Shown here piece by piece: positions 1,846 through 49,343 of a stretch of DNA of 49,343 bases. Position 1 is the first letter of the stretch; each line of letters starts with the position of its first letter. Origin of the DNA: SAR202 cluster bacterium (lineage in GTDB: Bacteria > Chloroflexota > Dehalococcoidia > Lucifugimonadales > Lucifugimonadaceae); NCBI GenBank assembly GCA_016872495.1, contig VGZT01000015.1, positions 1 to 49,343 on the forward strand, read 5' to 3'. The notes below the pieces were generated by a model. That model saw nothing but the letters and a program-made list of their open reading frames with translations, searched no databases and was not told where the DNA came from. The translations under genes and the position numbers were made by a program.

Positions 1846-3171
1846 CTAAGGCCCGCCGGGCTTGTTGATTGAAGCGAGGAATTCCGCGTTGTCCTGGGTC
1901 TTGACCAGGCGCTCGAGCACACGCTCGGTCGCCTCGGTGGACGCAGAGTCCTGCGAAATGATCGACACCATCCGCCGGAGCAGCCACACCTGCTTCAGCA
2001 TGGCGTCATCGAAGAGCAGTTCCTCCCTTCGAGTGCCGCTTCGGAGCACATCGATCGAAGGGAATACCCGTCGCTCGGCCAGTTTCCGATCCAGGTGGAC
2101 TTCCATATTGCCCGTGCCCTTGAACTCCTCGTAGATGAGGTCGTCCAGGCGGCTCCCGGTATCCACCAGACAGGTTGCGACGATCGTCAGGCTGCCACCT
2201 TCTTCGCAGTTTCTGGCTGCGCCGAAGAAGTTCTTGGGCGGATAAAGCGCGATCGGGTCCATACCACCGGAGAGCGTTCGGCCCGAACTGGGCACCGCCA
2301 GGTTGTAAGCCCGCGCGAGCCGGGTGAGGCTATCCATGAGAATGACCACGTCTTCGCCGCTCTCGACCAGGCGCTTCGCACGCTCGAGCGCGCGTTCCGC
2401 CTCGCGACAGTGCTCTTCGACCGGCTCATCGAACGTCGAGCTGTAGACCTCGCCGTCCACCGACCTGCGCATGTCGGTAACTTCCTCTGGTCGCTCTCCG
2501 ATCAGCGCCACAATCAGGTAGATCTCGGGGTGGTTTGCCGTGATCCCCGCGGCGATCTGTTTGAGGATGATGGTCTTTCCGGCCTTCGGCGGCGAGACGA
2601 TCAATGCACGTTGCCCCTTGCCGACCGGAGCAACCATGTCGATCAGCCGTGTCGACGTTACCTTCGGGGTCGTGGAGAGCTTTATCTGCTTCTCCGGGAA
2701 TAGCGGCGTCAGCTTCTCGAACTGGGGGCGTTTGCGTGAGGTCTCGGGGTCGTAGCCGTTAACGATCTCTACGCGCACGAGCCCGTAGAAGCGCTCGCCA
2801 TCCTTGGGGGCGCGAATCTGGCCGGCGACCATATCGCCGCTTCGGAGGCCAAACCTGCGCACCTGCGACTGGGAGACGTAGATTTCAGGGCCGTTCTTGG
2901 AGTTCGGGGAACGAAGAAATCCGTACCCCTCGTTGGTCAATTCGAGTACGCCGGCGCCAAGCAGCAGGTTGTTTTCCTCTGCATGATGCTGGAGCAGCGC
3001 CATTACAAGCTCGGACCTGCGGGCCGGAATTCCGATCTTGAGCCCGAGCTGCGGAATCATCTCCCGCAGCTCTGCGGTCGATTTGGACCCGAGGTCCCCG
3101 AGAGCCGAATAGGTCTCTTCCTCGGGGATATCGGCGACCGCCATGGGCCCGTTGACCCGCTCCTGATTCAC
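1846..3171 (-). CDS. rho: transcription termination factor Rho
   Basis: 441 aa, the normal Rho length. Rho is a hexameric RNA-dependent ATPase that releases RNA polymerase from untranslated transcripts. The N-terminal Rho-N region carries the [16 protein letters not shown] helix signature. It is followed by a cold-shock/OB RNA-binding domain ([27 protein letters not shown]). The ATPase domain has a PPKAGKT Walker A, a [16 protein letters not shown] Walker B region, and the downstream [20 protein letters not shown] and [17 protein letters not shown] signatures. The listed start is GTG at 3171. The ATG at 3144 (MAVADIPEE) is an alternative, since neither has an ideal ribosome-binding site. It sits downstream of pyrG on the same strand but has its own promoter. 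Confidence 0.97.
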
Positions 3172-3574: not shown

Positions 3575-5236
3575 TCACTGGTGGCCGGGAGTGCCGTTCT
3601 GGCTGTCCCCAAACGGGAGCGGGGGCTGGCCACCCTCGCGAATTATTCGCTTCGCTGCGCCCACGAACTCGCGGAACAGCGGGTGCGGCCGATCGGGCCG
3701 CGAGGCGAACTCGGGGTGAAATTGCGATCCGACCATGAACGGGTGACCCATGACTTCCGAGATTTCGACCAGCGACTCGTCCGGTGAGACGCCACTTGCA
3801 ATGAGGCCGGCCTCCTCGAACTGCAGCCGATAGTCGTTGTTTACCTCATAGCGGTGCCGGTGTCGCTCGGTCACGGCGCCCGTTCCATAGGCGCGTTCAG
3901 CCACGGTGTGCGTGCGGAGATTGCACGGGTACGAGCCAAGCCGCATCGTCCCGCCGGTCTCAGCCAACTCTTCCTGCCCCGGCAAATATGCGATCACCTG
4001 GTCCGGCGAGCGGGGGTCGAACTCCGAGGAGTTGGCCCGCTCGAGCCCGAGCGCGTGGCGAGCCATCTCGATGACCATCACCTGCATGCCGAGGCACAGG
4101 CCAAGGTAAGGAACGGCGCGCGTACGCGCGTAGGCAGCGGTTTCTATCATGCCCTCGATCCCACGCGGGCCGAAACCGCCTGGAACGACGATACCGGAAA
4201 CGGCGCCCAGCAGCCGGTCCGCGCCCACCCGCTCGACCTCTTCGGAGGGTATCCAGCTGATGTCAACCTGTCGGTCATGGAACAGGCCGGCGTGGCGGAG
4301 CGCTTCGTGTACGGACAGGTAGGAGTCGGTCAAATCCACGTACTTGCCGACGACGGCGATCTTGACCACGGGCTTGGGCTTGCGGATCAGGGCCACCATC
4401 TCGGCCCATGAGCGCAGATCCGCTTCCTTGCTCGTGAATCCAAAGCTGGAAGCGAGAAACCGTCCGAGGCCCTCTTGCTCAAGGTGCAGCGGGACCGCGT
4501 AAACGGTATCCAGCGTCGGGAGGCCGATCACGGCTTCGCCGGCTACGTCGCAATACAGGGAGATCTTCTCGCGCACTGAGGCGGGCACCGGGTGATCGGC
4601 ACGGCAGATGATCGCGTCGGGCTGTATGCCGAGCCCGCGTAATGCGGTCACCGAGTGCTGCGTGGGTTTTGTCTTCAGTTCCTGCGTCGAACTGAGGTAG
4701 GGCAGGAGGGTTAGATGTATGTATAGCGTGTTGCTGCGGCCGACGTCCTTGCGCATCTGGCGGATGGCTTCCAGGAAAGGCTGCCCCTCGATGTCGCCGA
4801 CGGTACCGCCGACTTCGACGACCACGACGTCGGGCCGTGTGGCGTCGGCGAGCTTCTTGATTCTCGCCTTGATGGCGTTAGTCACGTGGGGCACGGTCTG
4901 GATGGTCCCGCCCAGGTAGTCGCCACGCCTCTCGCGGCGTATCACCTCGCTGTAGATCTGGCCCGCGGTGACGTTGGAGAGCGAGGTCAGTTCGACGTCG
5001 ATAAAACGTTCGTAGTGGCCGAGGTCGAGGTCGGTCTCCGAGCCGTCAACGGTCACGAATACTTCGCCGTGCTGGTACGGAGACATCGTGCCGGGGTCCA
5101 CGTTCAGATACGGGTCGAGTTTCATGATCGAAACGGTCAGCCCGCGCGCCTTGAGCATGCGCCCGATCGAAGCGACTGTGATGCCCTTCCCGAGGGAGCT
5201 GACCACGCCACCGGTAACGAAAACGTACCTGGTCAT
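3575..5236 (-). CDS. pyrG: CTP synthase
   Basis: 553 aa, full length for the family. It makes CTP from UTP, ATP and glutamine in the cytoplasm. The N-terminal synthetase domain opens with YVFVTGGVVSSLGKGI (the P-loop-like ATP site) and contains LDPYLNVDPGTMSPYQHGEV and the VVEVGGTVGDIEGQPF block. The C-terminal class I glutamine amidotransferase domain has the oxyanion strand GIVVPGGFGPRG, the nucleophile motif YLGLCLGMQ and the terminal HPEF with the catalytic His and Glu. ATG start at 5236. The upstream 345 bp (5237-5581) contains a good promoter and a leader of about 230 nt but no gene. Confidence 0.97.
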   Translation of the reverse strand: MTRYVFVTGGVVSSLGKGITVASIGRMLKARGLTVSIMKLDPYLNVDPGTMSPYQHGEVFVTVDGSETDLDLGHYERFIDVELTSLSNVTAGQIYSEVIRRERRGDYLGGTIQTVPHVTNAIKARIKKLADATRPDVVVVEVGGTVGDIEGQPFLEAIRQMRKDVGRSNTLYIHLTLLPYLSSTQELKTKPTQHSVTALRGLGIQPDAIICRADHPVPASVREKISLYCDVAGEAVIGLPTLDTVYAVPLHLEQEGLGRFLASSFGFTSKEADLRSWAEMVALIRKPKPVVKIAVVGKYVDLTDSYLSVHEALRHAGLFHDRQVDISWIPSEEVERVGADRLLGAVSGIVVPGGFGPRGIEGMIETAAYARTRAVPYLGLCLGMQVMVIEMARHALGLERANSSEFDPRSPDQVIAYLPGQEELAETGGTMRLGSYPCNLRTHTVAERAYGTGAVTERHRHRYEVNNDYRLQFEEAGLIASGVSPDESLVEISEVMGHPFMVGSQFHPEFASRPDRPHPLFREFVGAAKRIIREGGQPPLPFGDSQNGTPGHQ

Positions 5237-5474
5237 GCAGGAAGCGCCTCAGGACACCGCCACCGGCCAGCAATTCCGGCCGGAAAACCGGCGGCGGTTG
5301 GCAGATTCGGAGGGGCAGGAAATAACCGGCGGTGCGATCGCCTGACGTCAAACAGGGTCGCGTTGCATACGTGAGGGCCGGCTATTGGAGGTGTCCTCGC
5401 AACTCCCGGTTACGCGCGCAGCCGCGTCGCATGGCGGGGCAGAGATCTGGATGGCCGCGAGGCCGTACTTGCCG

Positions 5475-5504
5475 ATTCTAGTTACGGGTGTGACGCGGTG
5501 TCAA
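5475..5504 (-). promoter_or_regulatory. pyrG promoter
   Basis: Minus strand: perfect TTGACA (5499-5504), 18-bp spacer, TAGAAT (5475-5480). This is one of the best sigma-A-type promoters in the window. It lies between surE and pyrG, so pyrG is transcribed separately from the panB-surE operon. The predicted leader is about 230 nt. Confidence 0.6.
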
Positions 5505-5581
5505 ACGCTGAAGTACGAGGACAGTCTGGCGTTCTATGAAGTACGCCGGGAAGCGGGGCGGCAGGGGCATATCGTTGTGGG

Positions 5582-6358
5582 CTACCCCCCTCCCTCCAGG
5601 GCCCCTTCGGCTGCCCTTACCAGGGCGTCCAGCCGGGAGGTTACGTCGCCCTCCGTGAACTCGGGATACAGGGCGGAAATCGAAAGATAACCGCGGCGAA
5701 CAGCTGCGACGTCAGTATCTGGCGCAGCCGAGTCGGCGGACCTGCCGCCTCGTCTCAGCAGCCAGTAATAGGTGCGATGACCCCGTTGCACCGTGTCGAT
5801 CGTGTCCTCGAGGAGGCGGGTTGCCACGCGGGTACGGCGTGCACCCCTTGGCCGTTCCCCGGGGAAGTTCACGTTTACGAACCATGGGAAGCCCCTGGCC
5901 CTGGCAACCTCAGCGACGATCGCCCTGGTGACCGACTGCACGGCAGGGTGCGATGGGTCGCTATCCCCGTCGACCGAGATGGCGACTGTTGAAACCCCGT
6001 TCAGAAAGGCGTGCAGGCCGGCGCCGACCGTACCGGAGATGACCACGTCCTCGCCCACGTTGGTCCCGGGGTTTATGCCGCTGACCACCAGGTCCACCGG
6101 CTCGCCAACCAGCTTGCGGAGGCCCAGGACCGCGGCGTCTCCCGGGGTCCCTTCGACTGCGAAGGTTCTTACGCCTTCAATTTCTGGCGTTACTTCCTTG
6201 GCCCGGATCATGTCATTGACGCTGAGCGCCGGGCCCACGCCGCTGCGATCGCGATCCGGGGCTGATACGACAATCTCGCCCAGCGGACGGACCGCGCGGA
6301 CGAGCGCCCACAGCCCGGGTGCATGGGCGCCGTCGTCGTTGGTCACCAGTATGCGCAC
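5582..6358 (-). CDS. surE: 5'/3'-nucleotidase SurE
   Basis: 258 aa, normal for SurE, a metal-dependent nucleoside-monophosphate and exopolyphosphate phosphatase. The metal-binding NDDG is at residues 7-10, after RILV. Further family blocks are APDRDRSGVG and VVSGINPGTNVGEDVVISGTV, where the usual GxNxG is preserved. The start is GTG at 6358 with an AGGA site 8 nt upstream. It follows panC by only 13 nt and is the last gene of the operon peptidase-panB-panC-surE. The link to pantothenate synthesis is positional only. Confidence 0.92.
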   Translation of the reverse strand: MRILVTNDDGAHAPGLWALVRAVRPLGEIVVSAPDRDRSGVGPALSVNDMIRAKEVTPEIEGVRTFAVEGTPGDAAVLGLRKLVGEPVDLVVSGINPGTNVGEDVVISGTVGAGLHAFLNGVSTVAISVDGDSDPSHPAVQSVTRAIVAEVARARGFPWFVNVNFPGERPRGARRTRVATRLLEDTIDTVQRGHRTYYWLLRRGGRSADSAAPDTDVAAVRRGYLSISALYPEFTEGDVTSRLDALVRAAEGALEGGG

Positions 6359-6371
6359 CGTTTCGTCCTGT

Positions 6372-7238
6372 TTAATCTCTGCCCGTGCCGGCAGGCGACA
6401 ACCCTTGCGGAAGCGTCATGTTATCGATGAGCCGCGTTCGACCGAGCCGGGCGGCGAGAGAAACGAGAGCTTCACGGTCGATCGTACTGAGCTCGGCAAG
6501 AGTCGAGCTGTCGGCCACGCTCACGTATTCGAGAGACACGAGCCGGCTCTTCCCGACGGTAGCGGTGATCGCGCTGCGCAGCACGTCCCCATTCCGCTCG
6601 CCCGCCTGAAAGAGGTCCTGCGCGTGCCTGAGCGCCCTGAACAGCACCGGAGCCTGATTCCGCTCATCCTTCGACAGGTAGATGTTCCGACTGCTCAGTG
6701 CCAGCCCATCGGCCGCGCGGACGGTAGCGACGCCGACGATCTCCACGCCAAAGCGGAGGTCGGAGGCCAGGCGTCGGATTATTCGCAATTGCTGGGCGTC
6801 CTTCTCCCCGAAGAAGGCCTGGTCCGGTCGAACGATGGCGAACAGCTTCGTCACGACCGTCGCCACGCCTTTAAAGTGGCCTGGCCGGCGTTCTCCTTCC
6901 AGCACTTGGCCGATTGGCCCGGGGTCAACCGTGGTCAGCGCGTCGCTCGGGTAGATTTCGTCGACTGCCGGTACGAACACCACGTCAGCGCCCGAACTGG
7001 CGAAGATCTCGAGATCCCGCTCCCGGTTCCTCGGGTAGCCGTCATAGTCTTCGCCCGGACCGAACTGGGTCGGGTTTACGAACAACGAAGTGACTACGGA
7101 CCGGGTCTGTGCGCGTGCCCGCTTGACGAGGGTCGCATGCCCATCGTGGAGTGCCCCCATCGTTGGTACGAATCCGACCGGGCCGGGCAGTCCCGCTCGC
7201 AGGGCCCTTAGCTCGGCAGCCGTTTCAACTACTTTCAT
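6372..7238 (-). CDS. panC: pantothenate synthetase
   Basis: 288 aa. It condenses pantoate with beta-alanine using ATP, the last step of vitamin B5 synthesis. The HIGH-like nucleotide motif is PTMGALHDGH, followed by SLFVNPTQFGPGEDYDGYPR (pantoate and ATP site), GHFKGVATVVTKLF and FFGEKDAQQL. The KMSKS-equivalent is ALSSRN. The frame extends further upstream to 7358, but the chosen ATG at 7238 (MKVVETAAEL) has an AGGAAG site directly upstream and matches the family's N-terminus. It lies 43 nt after panB, its pathway partner. Confidence 0.95.
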   Translation of the reverse strand: MKVVETAAELRALRAGLPGPVGFVPTMGALHDGHATLVKRARAQTRSVVTSLFVNPTQFGPGEDYDGYPRNRERDLEIFASSGADVVFVPAVDEIYPSDALTTVDPGPIGQVLEGERRPGHFKGVATVVTKLFAIVRPDQAFFGEKDAQQLRIIRRLASDLRFGVEIVGVATVRAADGLALSSRNIYLSKDERNQAPVLFRALRHAQDLFQAGERNGDVLRSAITATVGKSRLVSLEYVSVADSSTLAELSTIDREALVSLAARLGRTRLIDNMTLPQGLSPAGTGRD

Positions 7239-7281
7239 GTGCTTCCTGCGTAATTGGCGTGGTAGTAATCCGGCGCCTGAA

Positions 7282-8352
7282 TCACGGGGCCCGGCCTCTG
7301 GAGCGAGCCAGGCTGTCGAGCGTGCTCTGGTGACGGAGACTCGGACGGTTCTTCCCACGCTCCCACGCGCTGAGATTGTTCTTTGCGACGCCGACCTTTT
7401 CGCTCATCGCAGCCTGTGTCAGGCGCAGGTCTTCGCGAAGCGTCCTGATGCGCTCGGGGGTCCAGGCGAAGGAGGCCCGAACCGCCGCCACTTCCTCACG
7501 CGCGGGCGGCTTGCCGACCTCGAAGTTCATTGACGTTCCCGCTGGAATGTGGAAGGTCTCGTCATCCGAGGGGAACCGGCGCTCTTTCACGTCGTTGATG
7601 TAGCTGACGATGGCCGACTGAATCGTGCCTGACAGCTCTGCGTAACGGCGGGCATGCTTCGGTTGGAAGTCGGGGATCAACCCGAGCAGATCGTGCCAGA
7701 CCTGCACTTGTCCGTCGCACGCTGGCCCGGCACCGATTCCGATGGTTGGAATTCCAAGCCGGCCTGTGACCGCCGCGGCGACCTCTGCAGGCACGAGTTC
7801 CAGCACCACAGCAAACGCACCCGCCGCTTGAAGAAGCTCTGCGTCGCTCATGAGTTTCGCCGCCGAGCCCTCGTCCTTGCCCTGTACCCGGTAGCCGCCG
7901 ATCTGATTCAGGGATTGGGGGGTCAGCCCCAGGTGGCCCATGACGGCAACGCCGGCATCGCAGAGCCGGCGGACCGTATCCGCGACGGAACTGCCCCCTT
8001 CCAGCTTCACGGCGTGGGCTCCGCCTTCTTGCATGACCCGGGCGGCCGACTGCATGGCCTGTGCAGGACTTTCCTGGTATGTCATGAACGGCAGGTCGGC
8101 CACAACCAGAGCCCGTGGGGCGCCCCGAACCACCGAGGCTGTCGCCCTGACGATGTCGTCGAGTGTCACCGGGATCGTGGACTCATAACCGAGCATCACC
8201 TGACCCAGGCTGTCCCCGACCAGAATCATCGGGATGCCCGCCCGGTCGGCGAGCACGGCCGAGGTGTGGTCGTAGGCGGTGATCATTGGAATCAGTTCGC
8301 CGCGACGCTTCATCGAGCGAATTGCGTGGGTCGTCGTTCGTTTCACGTTCAA
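7282..8352 (-). CDS. panB: ketopantoate hydroxymethyltransferase fused to an XRE-type helix-turn-helix domain
   Basis: About 356 aa, some 80 longer than usual PanB. Residues 1-280 are a complete PanB, which transfers a hydroxymethyl group from methylene-THF to 2-ketoisovalerate. They include the Mg-binding ILVGDSLGQVMLGY, VADLPFMTYQ, AVKLEGG, and the catalytic Glu in VLELVPAE. After the normal end (SYINDVKERRFPSDDETFHIP) the frame continues without a stop into a linker. From about residue 298 to 346 there is a helix-turn-helix of the XRE/Cro kind (TPERIRTLREDLRLTQ, then NNLSAWERGKNRPS). The start is TTG at 8352, overlapping the TGA of the upstream peptidase gene. GTG at 8346 is possible. The fused domain suggests DNA binding, and so autoregulation of the pan operon is plausible but unproven. 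Confidence 0.93.
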   Translation of the reverse strand: MNVKRTTTHAIRSMKRRGELIPMITAYDHTSAVLADRAGIPMILVGDSLGQVMLGYESTIPVTLDDIVRATASVVRGAPRALVVADLPFMTYQESPAQAMQSAARVMQEGGAHAVKLEGGSSVADTVRRLCDAGVAVMGHLGLTPQSLNQIGGYRVQGKDEGSAAKLMSDAELLQAAGAFAVVLELVPAEVAAAVTGRLGIPTIGIGAGPACDGQVQVWHDLLGLIPDFQPKHARRYAELSGTIQSAIVSYINDVKERRFPSDDETFHIPAGTSMNFEVGKPPAREEVAAVRASFAWTPERIRTLREDLRLTQAAMSEKVGVAKNNLSAWERGKNRPSLRHQSTLDSLARSRGRAP

Positions 8353-9359
8353 CGTACCGCCGCTCCTGTGCTCTCGCCTTGCTTGCTGAGCTCGGAAACC
8401 GCCGGGATCCCGCCCAGGCCCGTGGCGCTCAAGATCGCGTTCAGGATTGCGCCAACCGTCGCCCGGGAGGCGGCGGCCCTCAGCCGGTCTTCGTGGACCT
8501 CGCCCAGTTCGCCGGTCGATAGCCCGAATATCGTGTCGCCGTCCTGGGACAGGTGGGCCGGACGGACCGCCATCGCTATGGCGTCCTGCGCCGCGCCGGC
8601 CAGTCGCGTTGCTGCCCGCCGGTCGAGTGAGGCATTGGTCGCCACCACCCCGATCACTGTGTTGAACTCCCAGTCGCGGAGCTTTGGAGGGTCGGAAATC
8701 AGGATCTCTTCCGAGTCCTCGAATCCGCCTCCGAGACGGCGTGGGCCCGCAACGAGTGAACCAGTAGCAGGGTCGACAATGCCGCCGACGGCGTTTACGA
8801 CGACCAGGGCGGCGGCCAGACAGCCATCGCCCAGGGAGACTGCCGCGGTGCCGATGCCGCCCTTGATGGCGGCACCCTTGCCCCGCAGCTTTGCGACGGT
8901 GCACCCGGTCCCCGCGCCGTAGCTGCCCTGTTGGACGTCTCGGGTGGCCGCCTGGCACGCCCTGTAACCGTCGTCCGAGCCTGGACGGATTTGATGCGTG
9001 ATCATCCCGAGGTCGAAGACGATGGCGGAAGGGACGATCGGGATACGGGCGCGACCGACCTTGAGTCCGACCCCCTTCTCTTCAAGGAACCGCACGGCAC
9101 CGGTTGCGGCTTCGAGTCCGAACGCGCTGCCGCCGGACAGCATGATCGCGTTGACCTGTTGGATGGCAGCAAGGGGATCGAGCATGGCGGTTTCGCGGCT
9201 GCCCGGCGCGGCGCCTCTGATGTCGATCCCGGCAGTGCAGGGACGTTCCAGGAGCACGACGGTACAGCCAGTTCCCGCCTCGGCGAGGGTGCGGTGCCCG
9301 ACTGTGATGCCGGCGATGTCTGTGATCTGGCCGGGTGCTGTCCGGAAAGATGCGCGCAT
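8349..9359 (-). CDS. P1/DmpA-family N-terminal-nucleophile peptidase
   Basis: 336 aa. The family (P1 peptidases, including L-aminopeptidase DmpA, beta-peptidyl aminopeptidases and nylon oligomer hydrolase NylC) is made as one chain that cleaves itself to free a nucleophile. The self-cleavage site is visible as Asn233-Thr234 in EFNTVIGVVATNA. Other family blocks are GITVGHRT, NAIMLSGGSAFGLEAATG, GAGTGCTVAK and DGDTIFGLSTG. The ATG at 9359 is preferred because the family starts near ITDIAGITVGH, and the upstream extension to 9596 is low-quality sequence. It is the first gene of the panB-panC-surE operon. A beta-peptidase could in principle supply beta-alanine for PanC, but that is speculation. 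The substrate is unknown. Confidence 0.88.
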   Translation of the reverse strand: MRASFRTAPGQITDIAGITVGHRTLAEAGTGCTVVLLERPCTAGIDIRGAAPGSRETAMLDPLAAIQQVNAIMLSGGSAFGLEAATGAVRFLEEKGVGLKVGRARIPIVPSAIVFDLGMITHQIRPGSDDGYRACQAATRDVQQGSYGAGTGCTVAKLRGKGAAIKGGIGTAAVSLGDGCLAAALVVVNAVGGIVDPATGSLVAGPRRLGGGFEDSEEILISDPPKLRDWEFNTVIGVVATNASLDRRAATRLAGAAQDAIAMAVRPAHLSQDGDTIFGLSTGELGEVHEDRLRAAASRATVGAILNAILSATGLGGIPAVSELSKQGESTGAAVR

Positions 9360-9363
9360 CGTA

Positions 9364-9383
9364 CCTGTATGTATATATGCAGG
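9364..9383. promoter_or_regulatory. AT-rich imperfect palindrome, candidate operator
   Basis: A 20-bp inverted repeat with CCTG/CAGG ends and a TATGTATATATG core matches its own reverse complement at 16 of 20 positions. It lies 5 nt upstream of the ATG of the peptidase-panB-panC-surE operon, in otherwise very GC-rich DNA. It overlaps the only -10-like sequence (TATATA) near this start, so a bound protein would block transcription. The rest of the gap 9384-9740 holds the divergent plus-strand promoter and no gene. Confidence 0.45.
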
Positions 9384-9603
9384 CGACGCGGCCAGCGGGA
9401 GTGGACCCCGTCGAGCGCCTCTTGTTTCAGGCAACGGTCGGGCTCGCAACATGCACGATGCCCGCGCGCTCAGGAAGTGGCGCTCCCAGAGTTCCGACTC
9501 GCCTCTCCGCGTGCCGCCTGCCCGTATCGACAGACCGCGAATGGGAGTAAGCGGTAACCGCACCACACATGGCGTGCGGTCGCTCAGAGGGTACACTATG
9601 TGT

Positions 9604-9633
9604 TTGACACTTGAATCTGGCGGGCGCGAGAAT
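9604..9633 (+). promoter_or_regulatory. promoter of the DUF177-rpmF-fabD operon
   Basis: Plus strand: perfect TTGACA (9604-9609), an 18-bp spacer and GAGAAT (9628-9633), about 100 bp upstream of the first gene. No other promoter is obvious before the long plus-strand operon. Confidence 0.45.
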
Positions 9634-9740
9634 TTTCTGGTTTGTGACCTTGCGCACGAATCGTTCGGTCACCCCGTAGTCGCAGTGCGGCGTCGTCCGT
9701 CACGGCAGGTCCGATTCGTCCGGCAAGCGAGGTCGGTCAA

Positions 9741-10283
9741 ATGCGGTTCAACGTTGCCGGGTTACTGCGCGCCACTGTCGGCGCGACTCGTCAGTACGAG
9801 ATCGAACCCGAATTGGTGCGCGACGACGGAGAGGTGTTCGAGGAGGTCCAGGGCGCCGTTCGCATGATGCGTACGGATCGTGGTGTCCTGGTTGAGGCAC
9901 AGTTACGGGCGATTGGATCCGATTCATGCAGCCGTTGTCTGGCTCCCATCAGAACGCGGCTTGAGGCGAGCGTTGAGGAGGAGTTCTACCCGATAAATCC
10001 ATTCCCGGGCGTCGGTCTTGACCTCGAAGAGCGCGACGAAGACAGGGGGCTGGATGACACGGTGTTCCTTATAGACGACCGCAACGAGATCGACTTGCGG
10101 GAGGTTGCTCGGCAGGCTCTTATTGCAACGAGGCCAATGGCCCCGGTATGCAGGCCAGAATGTGCCGGGCTGTGTCCCGTGTGCCACTCGGACCGTAACG
10201 TCAGCGCATGTGCATGCGAGAGCTCGATGTCCAGACCAGCGTCATTGCATCGACTCGCCGAGCAGTGGCGATTAAAAAGGTAG
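9741..10283 (+). CDS. DUF177 (YceD-family) protein
   Basis: 180 aa. The DUF177/YceD family is almost always encoded next to rpmF and is implicated in 23S rRNA maturation in plants and bacteria. This copy shows the usual pattern: a beta-rich N-terminal half and a first Cys pair (SCSRCLAP). After it come an acidic middle (EEFYPINP, LEERDEDRG) and an IDLREVARQALIATRPMAP block. A second Cys cluster (CRPECAGLCPVC) probably binds zinc. ATG start with a GAGG site. It is the first gene of the fatty-acid and ribosome operon, 27 nt before rpmF. Confidence 0.9.
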   Translation: MRFNVAGLLRATVGATRQYEIEPELVRDDGEVFEEVQGAVRMMRTDRGVLVEAQLRAIGSDSCSRCLAPIRTRLEASVEEEFYPINPFPGVGLDLEERDEDRGLDDTVFLIDDRNEIDLREVARQALIATRPMAPVCRPECAGLCPVCHSDRNVSACACESSMSRPASLHRLAEQWRLKR

Positions 10284-41509: not shown

Positions 41510-41797
41510 ATGCTTACCTCTGATGATGTGCGCCGGGTTGCCCGCCTCACCCGGATAGCGCTTTCCGATACCGAGCTGACCGTACTCCAGGACCAGTTGT
41601 CCAAAGTGCTTGGTCACTTCCAGTCGCTGCAAATGATCGACACGGAGGGAACCGAGCCGACCGGGCACGCGTCCGAAGGCAGGACCGTCATGAGAGACGA
41701 CCTTTCCGCACCATCGCTTGCACGGTCCGACGTGTTGAAGAACGCCCCGGAATCGGATGAGCCCATGGTGCGCGTGCGCCCGGTGCTCGGGAGTTGA
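41510..41797 (+). CDS. gatC: Asp-tRNA(Asn)/Glu-tRNA(Gln) amidotransferase subunit C
   Basis: 95 aa. The small subunit that stabilises GatA in the GatCAB complex, which converts misacylated Glu-tRNA(Gln) or Asp-tRNA(Asn). MLTSDDVRRVARLTRIALSDTEL and the LSKVLGHFQSLQMIDT block are typical, with the VMRDDLSAPSLARSDVLKNAPESD tail. The ATG is only 6 nt from a CATAAT -10, so the mRNA may have almost no leader. Coupled to gatA by a TTGA overlap. Confidence 0.95.
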   Translation: MLTSDDVRRVARLTRIALSDTELTVLQDQLSKVLGHFQSLQMIDTEGTEPTGHASEGRTVMRDDLSAPSLARSDVLKNAPESDEPMVRVRPVLGS

Positions 41798-43281
41798 GGG
41801 CAGACTCCACCTTGCCTGGCGCCGGCGATATCTTCATCACCGCGCACGCTGCCCGCGTCCTCATGGATCGCGGTGAGCTGTCGTCGACCGACCTTACAAA
41901 GCACTGCCTGTCCCGCATTTCGGCTCTGGAAGATCGTCTCCACAGTTTCCTGACGGTCCTCGAATCATCCGCATTGCAGGACGCTGCGGCCTCGGATGCC
42001 CGGCGACGCTCCGGGACTGCCCTGGGGCCGCTCGACGGTATTCCGATCGCGATCAAGGACAACATCTCGACCGCCGGGGTGCGGACGACGGCGGGATCGA
42101 AAATCCTGGACAGCTACGTTCCCCCGTTCGATGCGCACGTGGTGGAACGGCTCCGCGCATCTGGCGCGGTCATCGTTGGCAAGGCGAACCTCGACGAGTT
42201 CGCGATGGGGTCCTCCAACGAGAACTCCGCATTCGGGCCGGTCCGAAACCCGTGGGATGTCAATCGTGTACCGGGGGGTAGCAGCGGCGGCCCGGCAGCG
42301 GCGGTGTCGGCCGGAGAAGCGGTCGTCTCCCTGGGGTCGGACACGGGCGGGAGTATTCGTCAACCCGCAGCGCTCTGCGGAATCGTCGGCATGAAGCCGA
42401 CATACGGGCTGGTCAGTCGATACGGGCTGATCGCGTTTGCGAGCTCGCTGGACCAGATCGGGCCGTTCGCCCGCGACGTCACCGACTGCGCGATTTTGCT
42501 CGAGGCGATCAGCGGGCATGACCCGCGGGATTCGACCTCGCTGCAGCGCCCCCGCGAGACCTTCGTCGGATCCCTCCGAGGCGGCATCAAGGGCGTGCGC
42601 GTGGGCGTTCCGCGCGAGTACCTCGTCGATGGCATCGAGCCCGGCGTTCGGCGCGCGTTCGAGTCAGCCCTCCAGACGCTCACGAGCCTCGGCGCGGCGG
42701 TCGAAGAGTGCTCGCTCCCCCTGACCGACCAGGCACTTGCCGTGTACTACATCCTCGCCCCTTCGGAGGCTTCGGCGAACCTGGCCAGGTTCGACGGATT
42801 CAAATACGGGCACTCATCGCCAGGGGCACGTACTGCATGGGACACGATGGACCTGTCGCGCGCCGAGGGATTCGGCAGCGAGGTAAAGCGCAGGATCCTG
42901 CTGGGAGGGTATGCGCTTTCGGCCGGTTATTACGACGCCTACTACAAGAAGGCGCAGCAGGTCCGCACCTTGATCCGGCGAGAGTTCGCAGACGCGTTCG
43001 AGAGGTTCGATGCACTGGTCACGCCGACATCCCCAACCGTCGCCTTCAAGCTGGGCTCACGGACCCAGGACCCACTTTCCATGTACTTGAGCGACGTCTG
43101 CACGATCCCGGTTAACATCGCTGGATTGCCCGGGATCTCGCTTCCCGGCGGAATGTCGGATGGGCTCCCGGTGGGGCTGCAGGTGATCGGGCCGCAGTTC
43201 GGGGACGCACGTATCCTGAGAATCGCGTATTCGTATGAGCAGGCGACTGAATGGCATCTGAAGCGGCCGGAAATCAATTGA
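41794..43281 (+). CDS. gatA: Asp-tRNA(Asn)/Glu-tRNA(Gln) amidotransferase subunit A
   Basis: 495 aa. The amidase that releases ammonia from glutamine for GatB. The Ser-cis-Ser-Lys triad is visible: Lys in PIAIKDNIS, Ser in GGSSGGPAAAVSAGE and Ser in GSDTGGSIRQPA. FKPTYG-like MKPTYGLVSRYG and the C-terminal GLPVGLQVIGPQFGD are present. TTG start overlapping the gatC TGA. gatB is not in the window and must be elsewhere. Confidence 0.95.
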   Translation: MRADSTLPGAGDIFITAHAARVLMDRGELSSTDLTKHCLSRISALEDRLHSFLTVLESSALQDAAASDARRRSGTALGPLDGIPIAIKDNISTAGVRTTAGSKILDSYVPPFDAHVVERLRASGAVIVGKANLDEFAMGSSNENSAFGPVRNPWDVNRVPGGSSGGPAAAVSAGEAVVSLGSDTGGSIRQPAALCGIVGMKPTYGLVSRYGLIAFASSLDQIGPFARDVTDCAILLEAISGHDPRDSTSLQRPRETFVGSLRGGIKGVRVGVPREYLVDGIEPGVRRAFESALQTLTSLGAAVEECSLPLTDQALAVYYILAPSEASANLARFDGFKYGHSSPGARTAWDTMDLSRAEGFGSEVKRRILLGGYALSAGYYDAYYKKAQQVRTLIRREFADAFERFDALVTPTSPTVAFKLGSRTQDPLSMYLSDVCTIPVNIAGLPGISLPGGMSDGLPVGLQVIGPQFGDARILRIAYSYEQATEWHLKRPEIN

Positions 43282-47006: not shown

Positions 47007-47219
47007 TTGGCGACAAGAGCGCGCGACTTTGACGAGTTGTCCCGAATCGCCCTGGCACTGGGCTTCCGAACGAGCTCAGAGGACTATCGAATGATCGAGA
47101 ATCGCCTGGAGGCGCTCGAAGCAATCCTTGCCCAGCTCCGCGCGATCGACGTTTCCGCCTTTGAGCCGGCCTCGACATTCTCGGCGCAGCCTGGTCACGC
47201 CAGGACCCACGGTCGATGA
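47007..47219 (+). CDS. small GatC/AtzG-like protein coupled to an amidase
   Basis: 70 aa. TTG 47007 has GAGGTG at correct spacing, and TAGAAT (46984-46989) may be the -10. The sequence ARDFDELSRIALALGF, YRMIENRLEALEAILAQLRAID and FEPASTF aligns with GatC (helices and a C-terminal extended strap) and more closely with the AtzG/DUF4089 pattern. AtzG is a 68-residue GatC relative that supports the amidase AtzE. It overlaps the amidase gene by ATGA. A companion role is likely; the substrate is unknown. Confidence 0.75.
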   Translation: MATRARDFDELSRIALALGFRTSSEDYRMIENRLEALEAILAQLRAIDVSAFEPASTFSAQPGHARTHGR

Positions 47220-48622
47220 CCGAGCTTCACTACCAGTCGATCGCGGAGATCGCCCCTCAGATCAAGTCAGGCAAGCTTTCGCCGGTTCGCCTGACTGAGC
47301 TTGCCCTGGAACGCGTGGCCAGGCTCGACAAGTCGCTCAACGCCGTGCTTACGTTGCTCGGCGACCAGGCCCTGGCGTCCGCCCACCGGCACGCAAAGGA
47401 GATCCAGGCCGGAAGGTATCGCGGGGGGCTTCACGGCATTCCCATCGGGCTGAAGGACCTGTTTGATGTGGAGGGCGTGGCGACCACCGCAGGTTCCACG
47501 ATCCTGCGCCACAACATTGCGTCGGCCGATGCTTTCGTCACACGCAGGCTCAAGGACGCCGGCGCCATCATCATCGGCAAGCTCAACATGGTCGAGTTCG
47601 CGATGGGCGCAACGGGCCTGAATCCGCACTACGGCCCCGCGCGCAACCCGTGGGACACATCTCGCATCACGTGCGGTTCCTCCGGAGGTTCGGCCGCCGC
47701 AGTTGCGGCCGGTCTCTGTTTTGGGGCGCTTGGCAGCGACACCGGTGGCTCGATACGCATGCCCGCCGCCGTGTGCGGCCTTGCGGGATTCAAACCGACC
47801 TACGGGGTTGTGAGCCGCACGGGCGTCCTGGACCTCAGCTGGACCTGCGACCACGTGGGTCCAATGGCCAGGACCACCGCGGATTGCGCGCTGATGATGA
47901 ACGCCATTGCCGGTCACGACCCTGCCGATCCCGGCTCGGCGACCGCGCGCCCTGGCGCCTTCGATGCCCAGTTGGACCGCGGGCTGAGGGGCGTCCGGGT
48001 CGGCGTTCCCGCCCACTACTTCTTCGAAGGAGTCGATGCCGAGATCGAAGCGGCGGTCCGGTCTTCGATCGAGACTATGCGCTCGGCGGGCGCACTCGTC
48101 CGCGAGGTGGCGATGCCCTGGGCGAAACTGGGACGCACGATAAACGTCGGCGTGCTGGTGCCCGAGGCCGTCGCGGTACATGAGCAGTGGCTTAAGGCCA
48201 GCAGGACGAAATACAGCGCCGAGGTGCGCGCCCGGCTGGAGGCCGCACAGACGACGAGCGCGCTCGACTACATCCGGGCGCTGCGGGCCAGGCGGTGGTT
48301 CAACGAGCAGATGGAAGCTGCGCTGGCGGACGTCGACGTCCTGGTCACGCCCACGGTGCCCGTTCAGACGCCAACGATCGAGGAGTGCACTCCGCCACCG
48401 GGCGCCAATGAGGGCAAGGCAGGGGGCACGCTCGGCAACTTCACTGGCGTGTTCAACACGACCGGCGGGCCGTCGCTCAGCGTCACGTGTGGTTACACCC
48501 GGGCAGGTATGCCGATTGGAATGATGATCTCGGGACGCGCCTTCGAGGACGCCACGGTGCTGCGGGTGGGCGACGCCTATGAAAGAGCGGCGAAGCATAA
48601 CCTCCGCCACCCGGACATGTAA
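47216..48622 (+). CDS. amidase signature family enzyme (AtzE/GatA-like)
   Basis: 468 aa. The Ser-cis-Ser-Lys triad: Lys in PIGLKDLFDVEGV, Ser in TCGSSGGSAAAVAAG and Ser in GSDTGGSIRMPA. FKPTYGVVSRTGV and the hydrophobic MPIGMMISGRAFEDATVLRVGDAYE end are family features. It is about 25% shorter in the C-terminal domain than the large amidases and similar in size to GatA. With the small protein before it, it resembles AtzE-AtzG. A true second GatA is unlikely because gatC-gatA are at 41510. Confidence 0.9.
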   Translation: MTELHYQSIAEIAPQIKSGKLSPVRLTELALERVARLDKSLNAVLTLLGDQALASAHRHAKEIQAGRYRGGLHGIPIGLKDLFDVEGVATTAGSTILRHNIASADAFVTRRLKDAGAIIIGKLNMVEFAMGATGLNPHYGPARNPWDTSRITCGSSGGSAAAVAAGLCFGALGSDTGGSIRMPAAVCGLAGFKPTYGVVSRTGVLDLSWTCDHVGPMARTTADCALMMNAIAGHDPADPGSATARPGAFDAQLDRGLRGVRVGVPAHYFFEGVDAEIEAAVRSSIETMRSAGALVREVAMPWAKLGRTINVGVLVPEAVAVHEQWLKASRTKYSAEVRARLEAAQTTSALDYIRALRARRWFNEQMEAALADVDVLVTPTVPVQTPTIEECTPPPGANEGKAGGTLGNFTGVFNTTGGPSLSVTCGYTRAGMPIGMMISGRAFEDATVLRVGDAYERAAKHNLRHPDM

Positions 48623-48680: not shown

Positions 48681-48726
48681 TGGTCGGGGTGACAGGATTC
48701 GAACCTGTGGCCCCCAGTACTTCAGA
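48681..48726 (-). mobile_element. tRNA 3'-end fragment (probably tRNA-Pro), putative integration site
   Basis: The minus strand here reads as the last 46 nt of a tRNA. Anticodon loop-like CTGAAGT comes first, then ACTGG, GGGCC, the T arm ACAGG-TTCGAAT-CCTGT, CACCCCG, discriminator A and CCA. The 3' acceptor strand demands a 5' strand CGGGGTG (C1-G72), which is typical of tRNA-Pro. The 5' half is not present, so this is not a working gene. Such 3' copies mark the far end of elements that integrate into tRNA genes. Confidence 0.7.
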
Positions 48727-48927
48727 CGGTCCTATCGGCGCTGACAGGTAACAATCAAGGCTGAACGCGCCCCGAGTCCCCGCGACGGCCTTGGTTTTGG
48801 TCGCGGCCGCGTCAATACGTGCGCGTTTCTATTGAGACGGGTGCCCGGCCGTGCGCCGCGCCTGCGAGCGCACGAACCGGCAGTAAATTCCTCCTGCAAC
48901 CCCACCCCATTGTGAAGGAGGACGCCC

Positions 48928-49123
48928 ATGCATCGCCTGCTGTCAACGACCAAAGCCTGACGCGCTTTACATCGACTTTGAGGGCGCTGCTACCGAACCG
49001 CCATCGCTCCTCGGCCTCCTCTTGTGCCGGGGCCGAGGGGCAGGGCAGACACGCTCCCCAACTACGCGGCCCTCACCGGATACCACATTCACCCAGATAA
49101 AAGCGGACGACGGAGATGAAGCA
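48928..49123 (+). pseudogene. frameshifted gene remnant (STTK-PDALYIDFEG)
   Basis: A strong AAGGAGG site precedes ATG 48928, but its frame ends after MHRLLSTTKA. Skipping one base after the AAA codon joins it to PDALYIDFEGAATEPPSLLGLLL, which reads like a real protein start. The later part is not coherent. It may be a decayed gene or need a +1 frameshift. I cannot name the family. The gap 48727-48927 has nothing I can support. Confidence 0.4.
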
Positions 49124-49343
49124 ATGCACGACCAGAGCGACAGTGCCCAGCAGACCCACACCGATCCCCTGACCACTTGGCTCACCAGCCTGCGCCTCGG
49201 CGACCCGATCACTCAAGGGCCCCTGGCCCTGGTGCCTGTCTTCGCCGACGGGGCGCCGAACAGCCTCAAGTACCGCACGCTCGCCGATGCGATCGCACGT
49301 GGTGAGGTAACCGTCACCGAGTTGCCGACGGCGCAGGTGCCCA
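49124..49343 (+). CDS. ARPP-1/DUF6569-like protein (C-terminus beyond window)
   Basis: 73 residues before the window ends. ATG 49124 with GGAG upstream. The part seen, LTTWLTSLRLGDPITQGPL, then ALVPVFADGAP, then YRTLADAIARGEVTVTELP, matches the start of ARPP-1 domains. These are named for association with ARG and rhodanese-phosphatase proteins in prokaryotic conflict-related gene neighbourhoods. The frame is open upstream to 48887, continuous with the YIDFEG remnant. This is the first intact gene on the island side of the tRNA fragment. Confidence 0.7.
   Translation, partial: MHDQSDSAQQTHTDPLTTWLTSLRLGDPITQGPLALVPVFADGAPNSLKYRTLADAIARGEVTVTELPTAQVP

What the first reader, a model, noticed from the sequence alone, without database searches (positions are those of the whole stretch)
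48681..48726. tRNA-Pro 3' fragment predicts an integrated element beyond the window
The fragment runs from the anticodon loop to CCA, with no 5' half. Its CCA end faces the core genes (left). In tRNA-targeted integration, the duplicated 3' copy lies at the element end that is distant from the intact tRNA, with chromosome beyond the CCA. So the element should extend to the right from about 48727. An intact tRNA-Pro with the same 3' 46 nt should stand at its far end.
Basis: partly seen in the sequence, partly recalled or inferred. Interest (0 to 1): 0.7.

Follow-up and report, generated by a model that had tools for sequence, protein, structure and literature searches.

The report
Inserted DNA element marks split tRNA-Pro

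Summary
The window is a whole contig (C15) of a Chloroflexota draft genome and ends 623 bp past the fragment. Window 48681-48720 is an exact 40-nt copy of the 3' end (position 37 to CCA) of tRNA-Pro(GGG). The intact gene, with acceptor CGGGGTG and in the same orientation, lies on contig C41 at 2951-3026, followed by prfB.

In a species of the same genus, one contig (G001:C90) carries argS, amidase, chrA, tRNA-Pro(GGG), prfB and ABC transporter genes. C15 matches its left part and C41 its right part. The C15 fragment joined to the 5' part of the C41 tRNA equals the relative's tRNA, 76/76. So C15 and C41 flank an insertion at tRNA-Pro(GGG).

Visible element DNA is 623 bp on C15 (start of an ARPP-1 gene) and 2950 bp on C41 (a VWA-like gene essentially unique to this genome among 76 family and 393 class genomes). 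The interior and the integrase are missing from the readable bin. This is a classic tRNA-targeted genomic island. The notable extra: tRNA-Pro(TGG) and tRNA-Pro(CGG) of the same genome also show signs of such integrations.

The parts
48681..48720 (-). Displaced 3' fragment of tRNA-Pro(GGG), position 37 to CCA; far-end attachment site of the element
   Evidence: 40/40 identical to C41:2951-2990 and to G001:C90:5213-5252
48721..49343 (.). Visible part of the element on this contig (623 bp, to the contig end)
   Evidence: No counterpart in the same-genus site G001:C90 and no second copy in the genome; inferred to be element DNA from the geometry
49124..49343 (+). Start of an ARPP-1-domain gene (ATG at about 49124), cut by the contig end
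   Evidence: Pfam PF20208, E 3e-7, profile positions 2-50 of 297; the rest of the domain is nowhere in the readable genome
48623..48680 (.). Chromosomal spacer between the amidase stop and the displaced fragment; carries a hairpin followed by a T-rich stretch in tRNA sense, perhaps the former terminator of the tRNA
   Evidence: Fold of -16.7 kcal/mol; terminator role inferred
47216..48622 (+). Amidase, core gene at the left side of the insertion
   Evidence: PF01425, E 6.5e-118; 73% identical ortholog at G001:C90:2502-3887 beside the uninterrupted tRNA-Pro site

Best explanation
A mobile element (genomic island or prophage) integrated by site-specific recombination into the tRNA-Pro(GGG) gene that stood between the amidase and prfB. 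The element carried its own copy of the tRNA's 3' 40 nt. On integration that copy joined the chromosomal 5' part, so the tRNA stayed intact (now C41:2951-3026), and the original 3' part was pushed to the far end of the element (window 48681-48720). Going right from the window, the order is: amidase, displaced fragment, element (623 bp seen, a gap, 2950 bp seen on C41), intact tRNA-Pro(GGG), prfB. Shown: the duplication, its orientation, the uninterrupted site in a relative, and foreign DNA at both inner sides. Inferred: that the two inner sides belong to one element, and that a tyrosine recombinase did it.
For: Exact 40-nt duplication ending at CCA. Intact tRNA-Pro(GGG) at C41:2951-3026, minus strand, same orientation. 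C15:44998-48582 matches G001:C90:1-3853 and C41:2950-8372 matches G001:C90:5212-10278, in pieces at 73-78% nucleotide identity and 100% over the tRNA, so one relative contig bridges both. The joined fragment plus 5' part equals the relative's tRNA, 76/76. A prfB beside tRNA-Pro(GGG) recurs in other genera (G008, G009, G010), and the amidase near tRNA-Pro(GGG) in G011. The VWA-like gene C41:344-2104 has no counterpart elsewhere in the family or class apart from one marginal 59-residue hit. The duplication starts just 3' of the anticodon, in the anticodon-centred class of attachment sites that Islander counts as the larger of its two classes (PMC4383910).
Against: No integrase gene lies within the 2950 bp or 623 bp visible, and the interior is not in the readable bin. 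C15 and C41 are linked by synteny, not by sequence across the element. The draft genome could in principle hold a mis-join at the 40-nt repeat, though contig ends overlap by 127 bp, which suggests an assembly k-mer far longer than 40.
Confidence: 0.93

Rival explanations
1. Assembly or binning artefact: the 40-nt tRNA repeat caused a false join, and the C15 tail comes from elsewhere.
For: Metagenome-type draft in 102 contigs; both contigs end close to the site; visible tails are short.
Against: Contig ends overlap by exactly 127 bp, implying k of about 127, much longer than the 40-nt repeat. A random false join would not give both half sites in the exact geometry of integration with the core genes split as in the relative.
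Confidence: 0.04
2. Two or more elements in tandem, or a decayed array, at tRNA-Pro(GGG), so that the C15 tail and the C41 left end belong to different elements. (A variant of the main explanation, not exclusive of it.)
For: Tandem islands are known (PMC4383910). No integrase is seen at either end. GC differs slightly between parts (C15 tail 0.647, C41:1-2105 0.601).
Against: No further copy of the 40-nt core is found in the readable genome, as a tandem would need, although contigs under 3 kb are masked.
Confidence: 0.15
3. Partial tRNA gene duplication or decayed tRNA pseudogene, without any mobile element.
For: Only the 3' part is present.
Against: The neighbours of the relative's single tRNA are split between the fragment and the intact copy, and unrelated lineage-specific DNA fills both inner sides.
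Confidence: 0.02

Closest known systems
tRNA-targeted genomic islands as catalogued in Islander (PMC4383910), anticodon-centred class
   Same: Intact tRNA plus displaced 3' fragment, same orientation, 3' fragment on the downstream side, fragment reaching the tRNA end, foreign DNA between.
   Different: Integrase and interior not seen; tRNA and fragment are on two contigs, joined by synteny only.

Membership tests
tRNA-targeted genomic island (Islander criteria) | Intact tDNA and cognate 3'-end fragment in the same genome | tested here: met
   40/40 identity, fragment ends at CCA
tRNA-targeted genomic island (Islander criteria) | Same orientation, and 3' fragment on the downstream side of the tRNA | tested here: met
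   Order and orientation set by the bridging contig G001:C90
tRNA-targeted genomic island (Islander criteria) | Fragment does not overlap a conserved protein domain | tested here: met
   The fragment lies past the amidase stop codon (48622); the ARPP-1 match starts at 49190
tRNA-targeted genomic island (Islander criteria) | Integrase gene inside the interval | not testable with these tools
   The interior is not in the readable bin. No integrase in the visible 3573 bp; the genome's integrase hits lie on C4, C9, C17, C25, C67 and C68, none linked to this site
tRNA-targeted genomic island (Islander criteria) | Length of 2-200 kb | tested here: inconclusive
   At least 3573 bp visible; total unknown
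tRNA-targeted genomic island (general) | Uninterrupted site in a relative | tested here: met
   G001:C90 (JACPRT010000139.1) has amidase, chrA, tRNA-Pro(GGG), prfB on one contig

The most novel reading that the evidence does not exclude
A family of related elements in this Chloroflexota lineage specialises in tRNA-Pro genes and has entered all three isoacceptors (GGG, TGG, CGG) of one genome, supplying a conserved flank of about 190 bp (at GGG and TGG) that includes a new terminator for the tRNA.
Probability: 0.3. Interest if true: 0.4.

Novelty: new member of a known kind. Interest (0 to 1): 0.22.

Why it matters
It shows that a 40-nt tRNA tail at a contig edge correctly predicted an insertion, and it locates both ends of an accessory element in a draft genome whose interior was lost. 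Elements of this groundwater-type Chloroflexota lineage appear poorly sampled: the VWA-like protein had no match in the phage, plasmid and viral-contig collections or the named genomes scanned. The biology itself is textbook.

Tried and rejected
Searches for the element's DNA or its VWA-like protein in viral contigs, phages, plasmids and named genomes found nothing (the contig scans reach close relatives only); the ARPP-1 start had no phage match. Joining C15 or C41 to other contigs by end overlap: no match for the C15 tail or the C41 left end in the readable genome; contigs C87-C102 (under 3 kb) read N and could not be tested. Assigning an integrase: C9's lies near tRNA-Lys and C25's fragment near tRNA-Asn, C68's sits on a contig with dnaN, and C67's is a remnant with a stop; none is linked to tRNA-Pro. 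Low-GC contigs C75, C78 and C81 were scanned as candidate interior: C78 and C81 carry sugar-nucleotide, glycosyltransferase and methyltransferase genes; C75 carries a DUF3991/Toprim protein typical of plasmids or integrative elements but has no link to this site.

Full report
Observation. The window is the whole contig C15 (49343 bp) of genome G000, which has 102 contigs, 2.34 Mb and 98% completeness. On the minus strand at 48681-48720 lie the last 40 nt of a tRNA-Pro(GGG), from position 37 to CCA, with no 5' half. About 4e-16 chance copies of such a 40-mer are expected in the genome.

The predicted intact gene. The same 40 nt occur once more, at C41:2951-2990, as the 3' end of an intact tRNA-Pro(GGG) at C41:2951-3026, minus strand. 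On its 5' side lie prfB and a family-5 solute-binding protein, both core-type genes. On its CCA side lie 2950 bp up to the contig end.

The uninterrupted site. In a species of the same genus (G001; JACPRT010000139.1, Chloroflexi MAG from groundwater) one 10.3-kb contig holds argS, amidase, a chromate-transporter-like gene on the other strand (named from its sequence by the investigator), tRNA-Pro(GGG), prfB and ABC transporter genes. C15:44998-48582 aligns to its first 3853 bp, and C41:2950-8372 aligns to 5212-10278, in pieces at 73-78% identity; the tRNA itself is 100% identical. C15's fragment plus the 5' part of the C41 tRNA equals the relative's tRNA, 76/76. A prfB lies beside tRNA-Pro(GGG) also in G008, G009 and G010, and the amidase near it in G011, so the linkage looks ancestral. 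The chrA gene was not detected at the G011 site and is probably specific to G001 or its close kin.

The inner sides. C15:48721-49343 contains the first 50 positions of an ARPP-1 domain (PF20208), cut by the contig end; the rest of the domain is nowhere in the readable genome. C41:344-2104 encodes a 586-aa protein with a weak VWA match, below the Pfam cut-off. It has no counterpart in the other family genomes (76 searched) or class genomes (393 searched), except a marginal 59-residue hit in G003, and none in the phage, plasmid and viral-contig collections. The tRNA's new downstream flank on C41 brings its own terminator-like hairpin, unlike the terminator in the relative.

Mechanism. All this fits the standard scheme in which an island's attachment site carries a tRNA 3' fragment that restores the gene on integration, leaving the intact tRNA and the displaced fragment at the two ends (PMC4383910). 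The block starts next to the anticodon, in the anticodon-centred class (2083 islands against 1836 for the T-stem class in that paper). That a tyrosine integrase did it follows from what is known of tRNA sites (same paper); the gene was not seen here. Neither C15's tail nor C41's left end overlaps any readable contig, so the interior was not binned or lies in the masked small contigs.

A broader pattern. The roughly 190 bp after the CCA of tRNA-Pro(GGG) on C41 are homologous (77% over the tRNA and near flank, then 95% over 38 bp) to those after tRNA-Pro(TGG) on C73, up to a shared CCCGTTCGTCCC motif. Since the relative's tRNA-Pro(GGG) has a different flank, the C41 flank probably arrived with the element, and C73 probably carries a related one. 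The last 26 nt of tRNA-Pro(CGG) (C12:51123-51198) recur at C29:505-530, with a further shared 23-mer about 60-75 bp beyond the CCA, which suggests a third event. This is suggestive only; no uninterrupted counterparts were found for those two sites.

Verdict. It is a new member of a well-known kind, of low to moderate interest.

Noticed in passing
G000:C73 (L005):2857-3110: The flank after the CCA of tRNA-Pro(TGG) is homologous to the element-side flank of tRNA-Pro(GGG) on C41, followed by an HTH regulator gene: probably a related element in a second tRNA-Pro gene.
   Followed up: partly
G000:C29 (L136):505-530 and G000:C12 (L135):5124-5294: The last 26 nt of tRNA-Pro(CGG) recur on C29, plus a second shared 23-mer beyond the CCA: possibly a third integration, or tandem copies.
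   Followed up: partly
G000:C41 (L004):2776-2823: Long inverted repeat with CCGTTCGTCCCTCATC arms near the element end; folds at -40 kcal/mol. Terminator or recombinase-binding site.
   Followed up: no
G000:C75 (L102):1959-4922: Lower-GC contig with a DUF3991/Toprim_2 protein and an HTH protein, typical of plasmids or integrative elements; not linked to this site.
   Followed up: no
window 41794-43281 and 47216-48622: Two amidase-family genes (PF01425) within 7 kb, about 40% identical.
   Followed up: no
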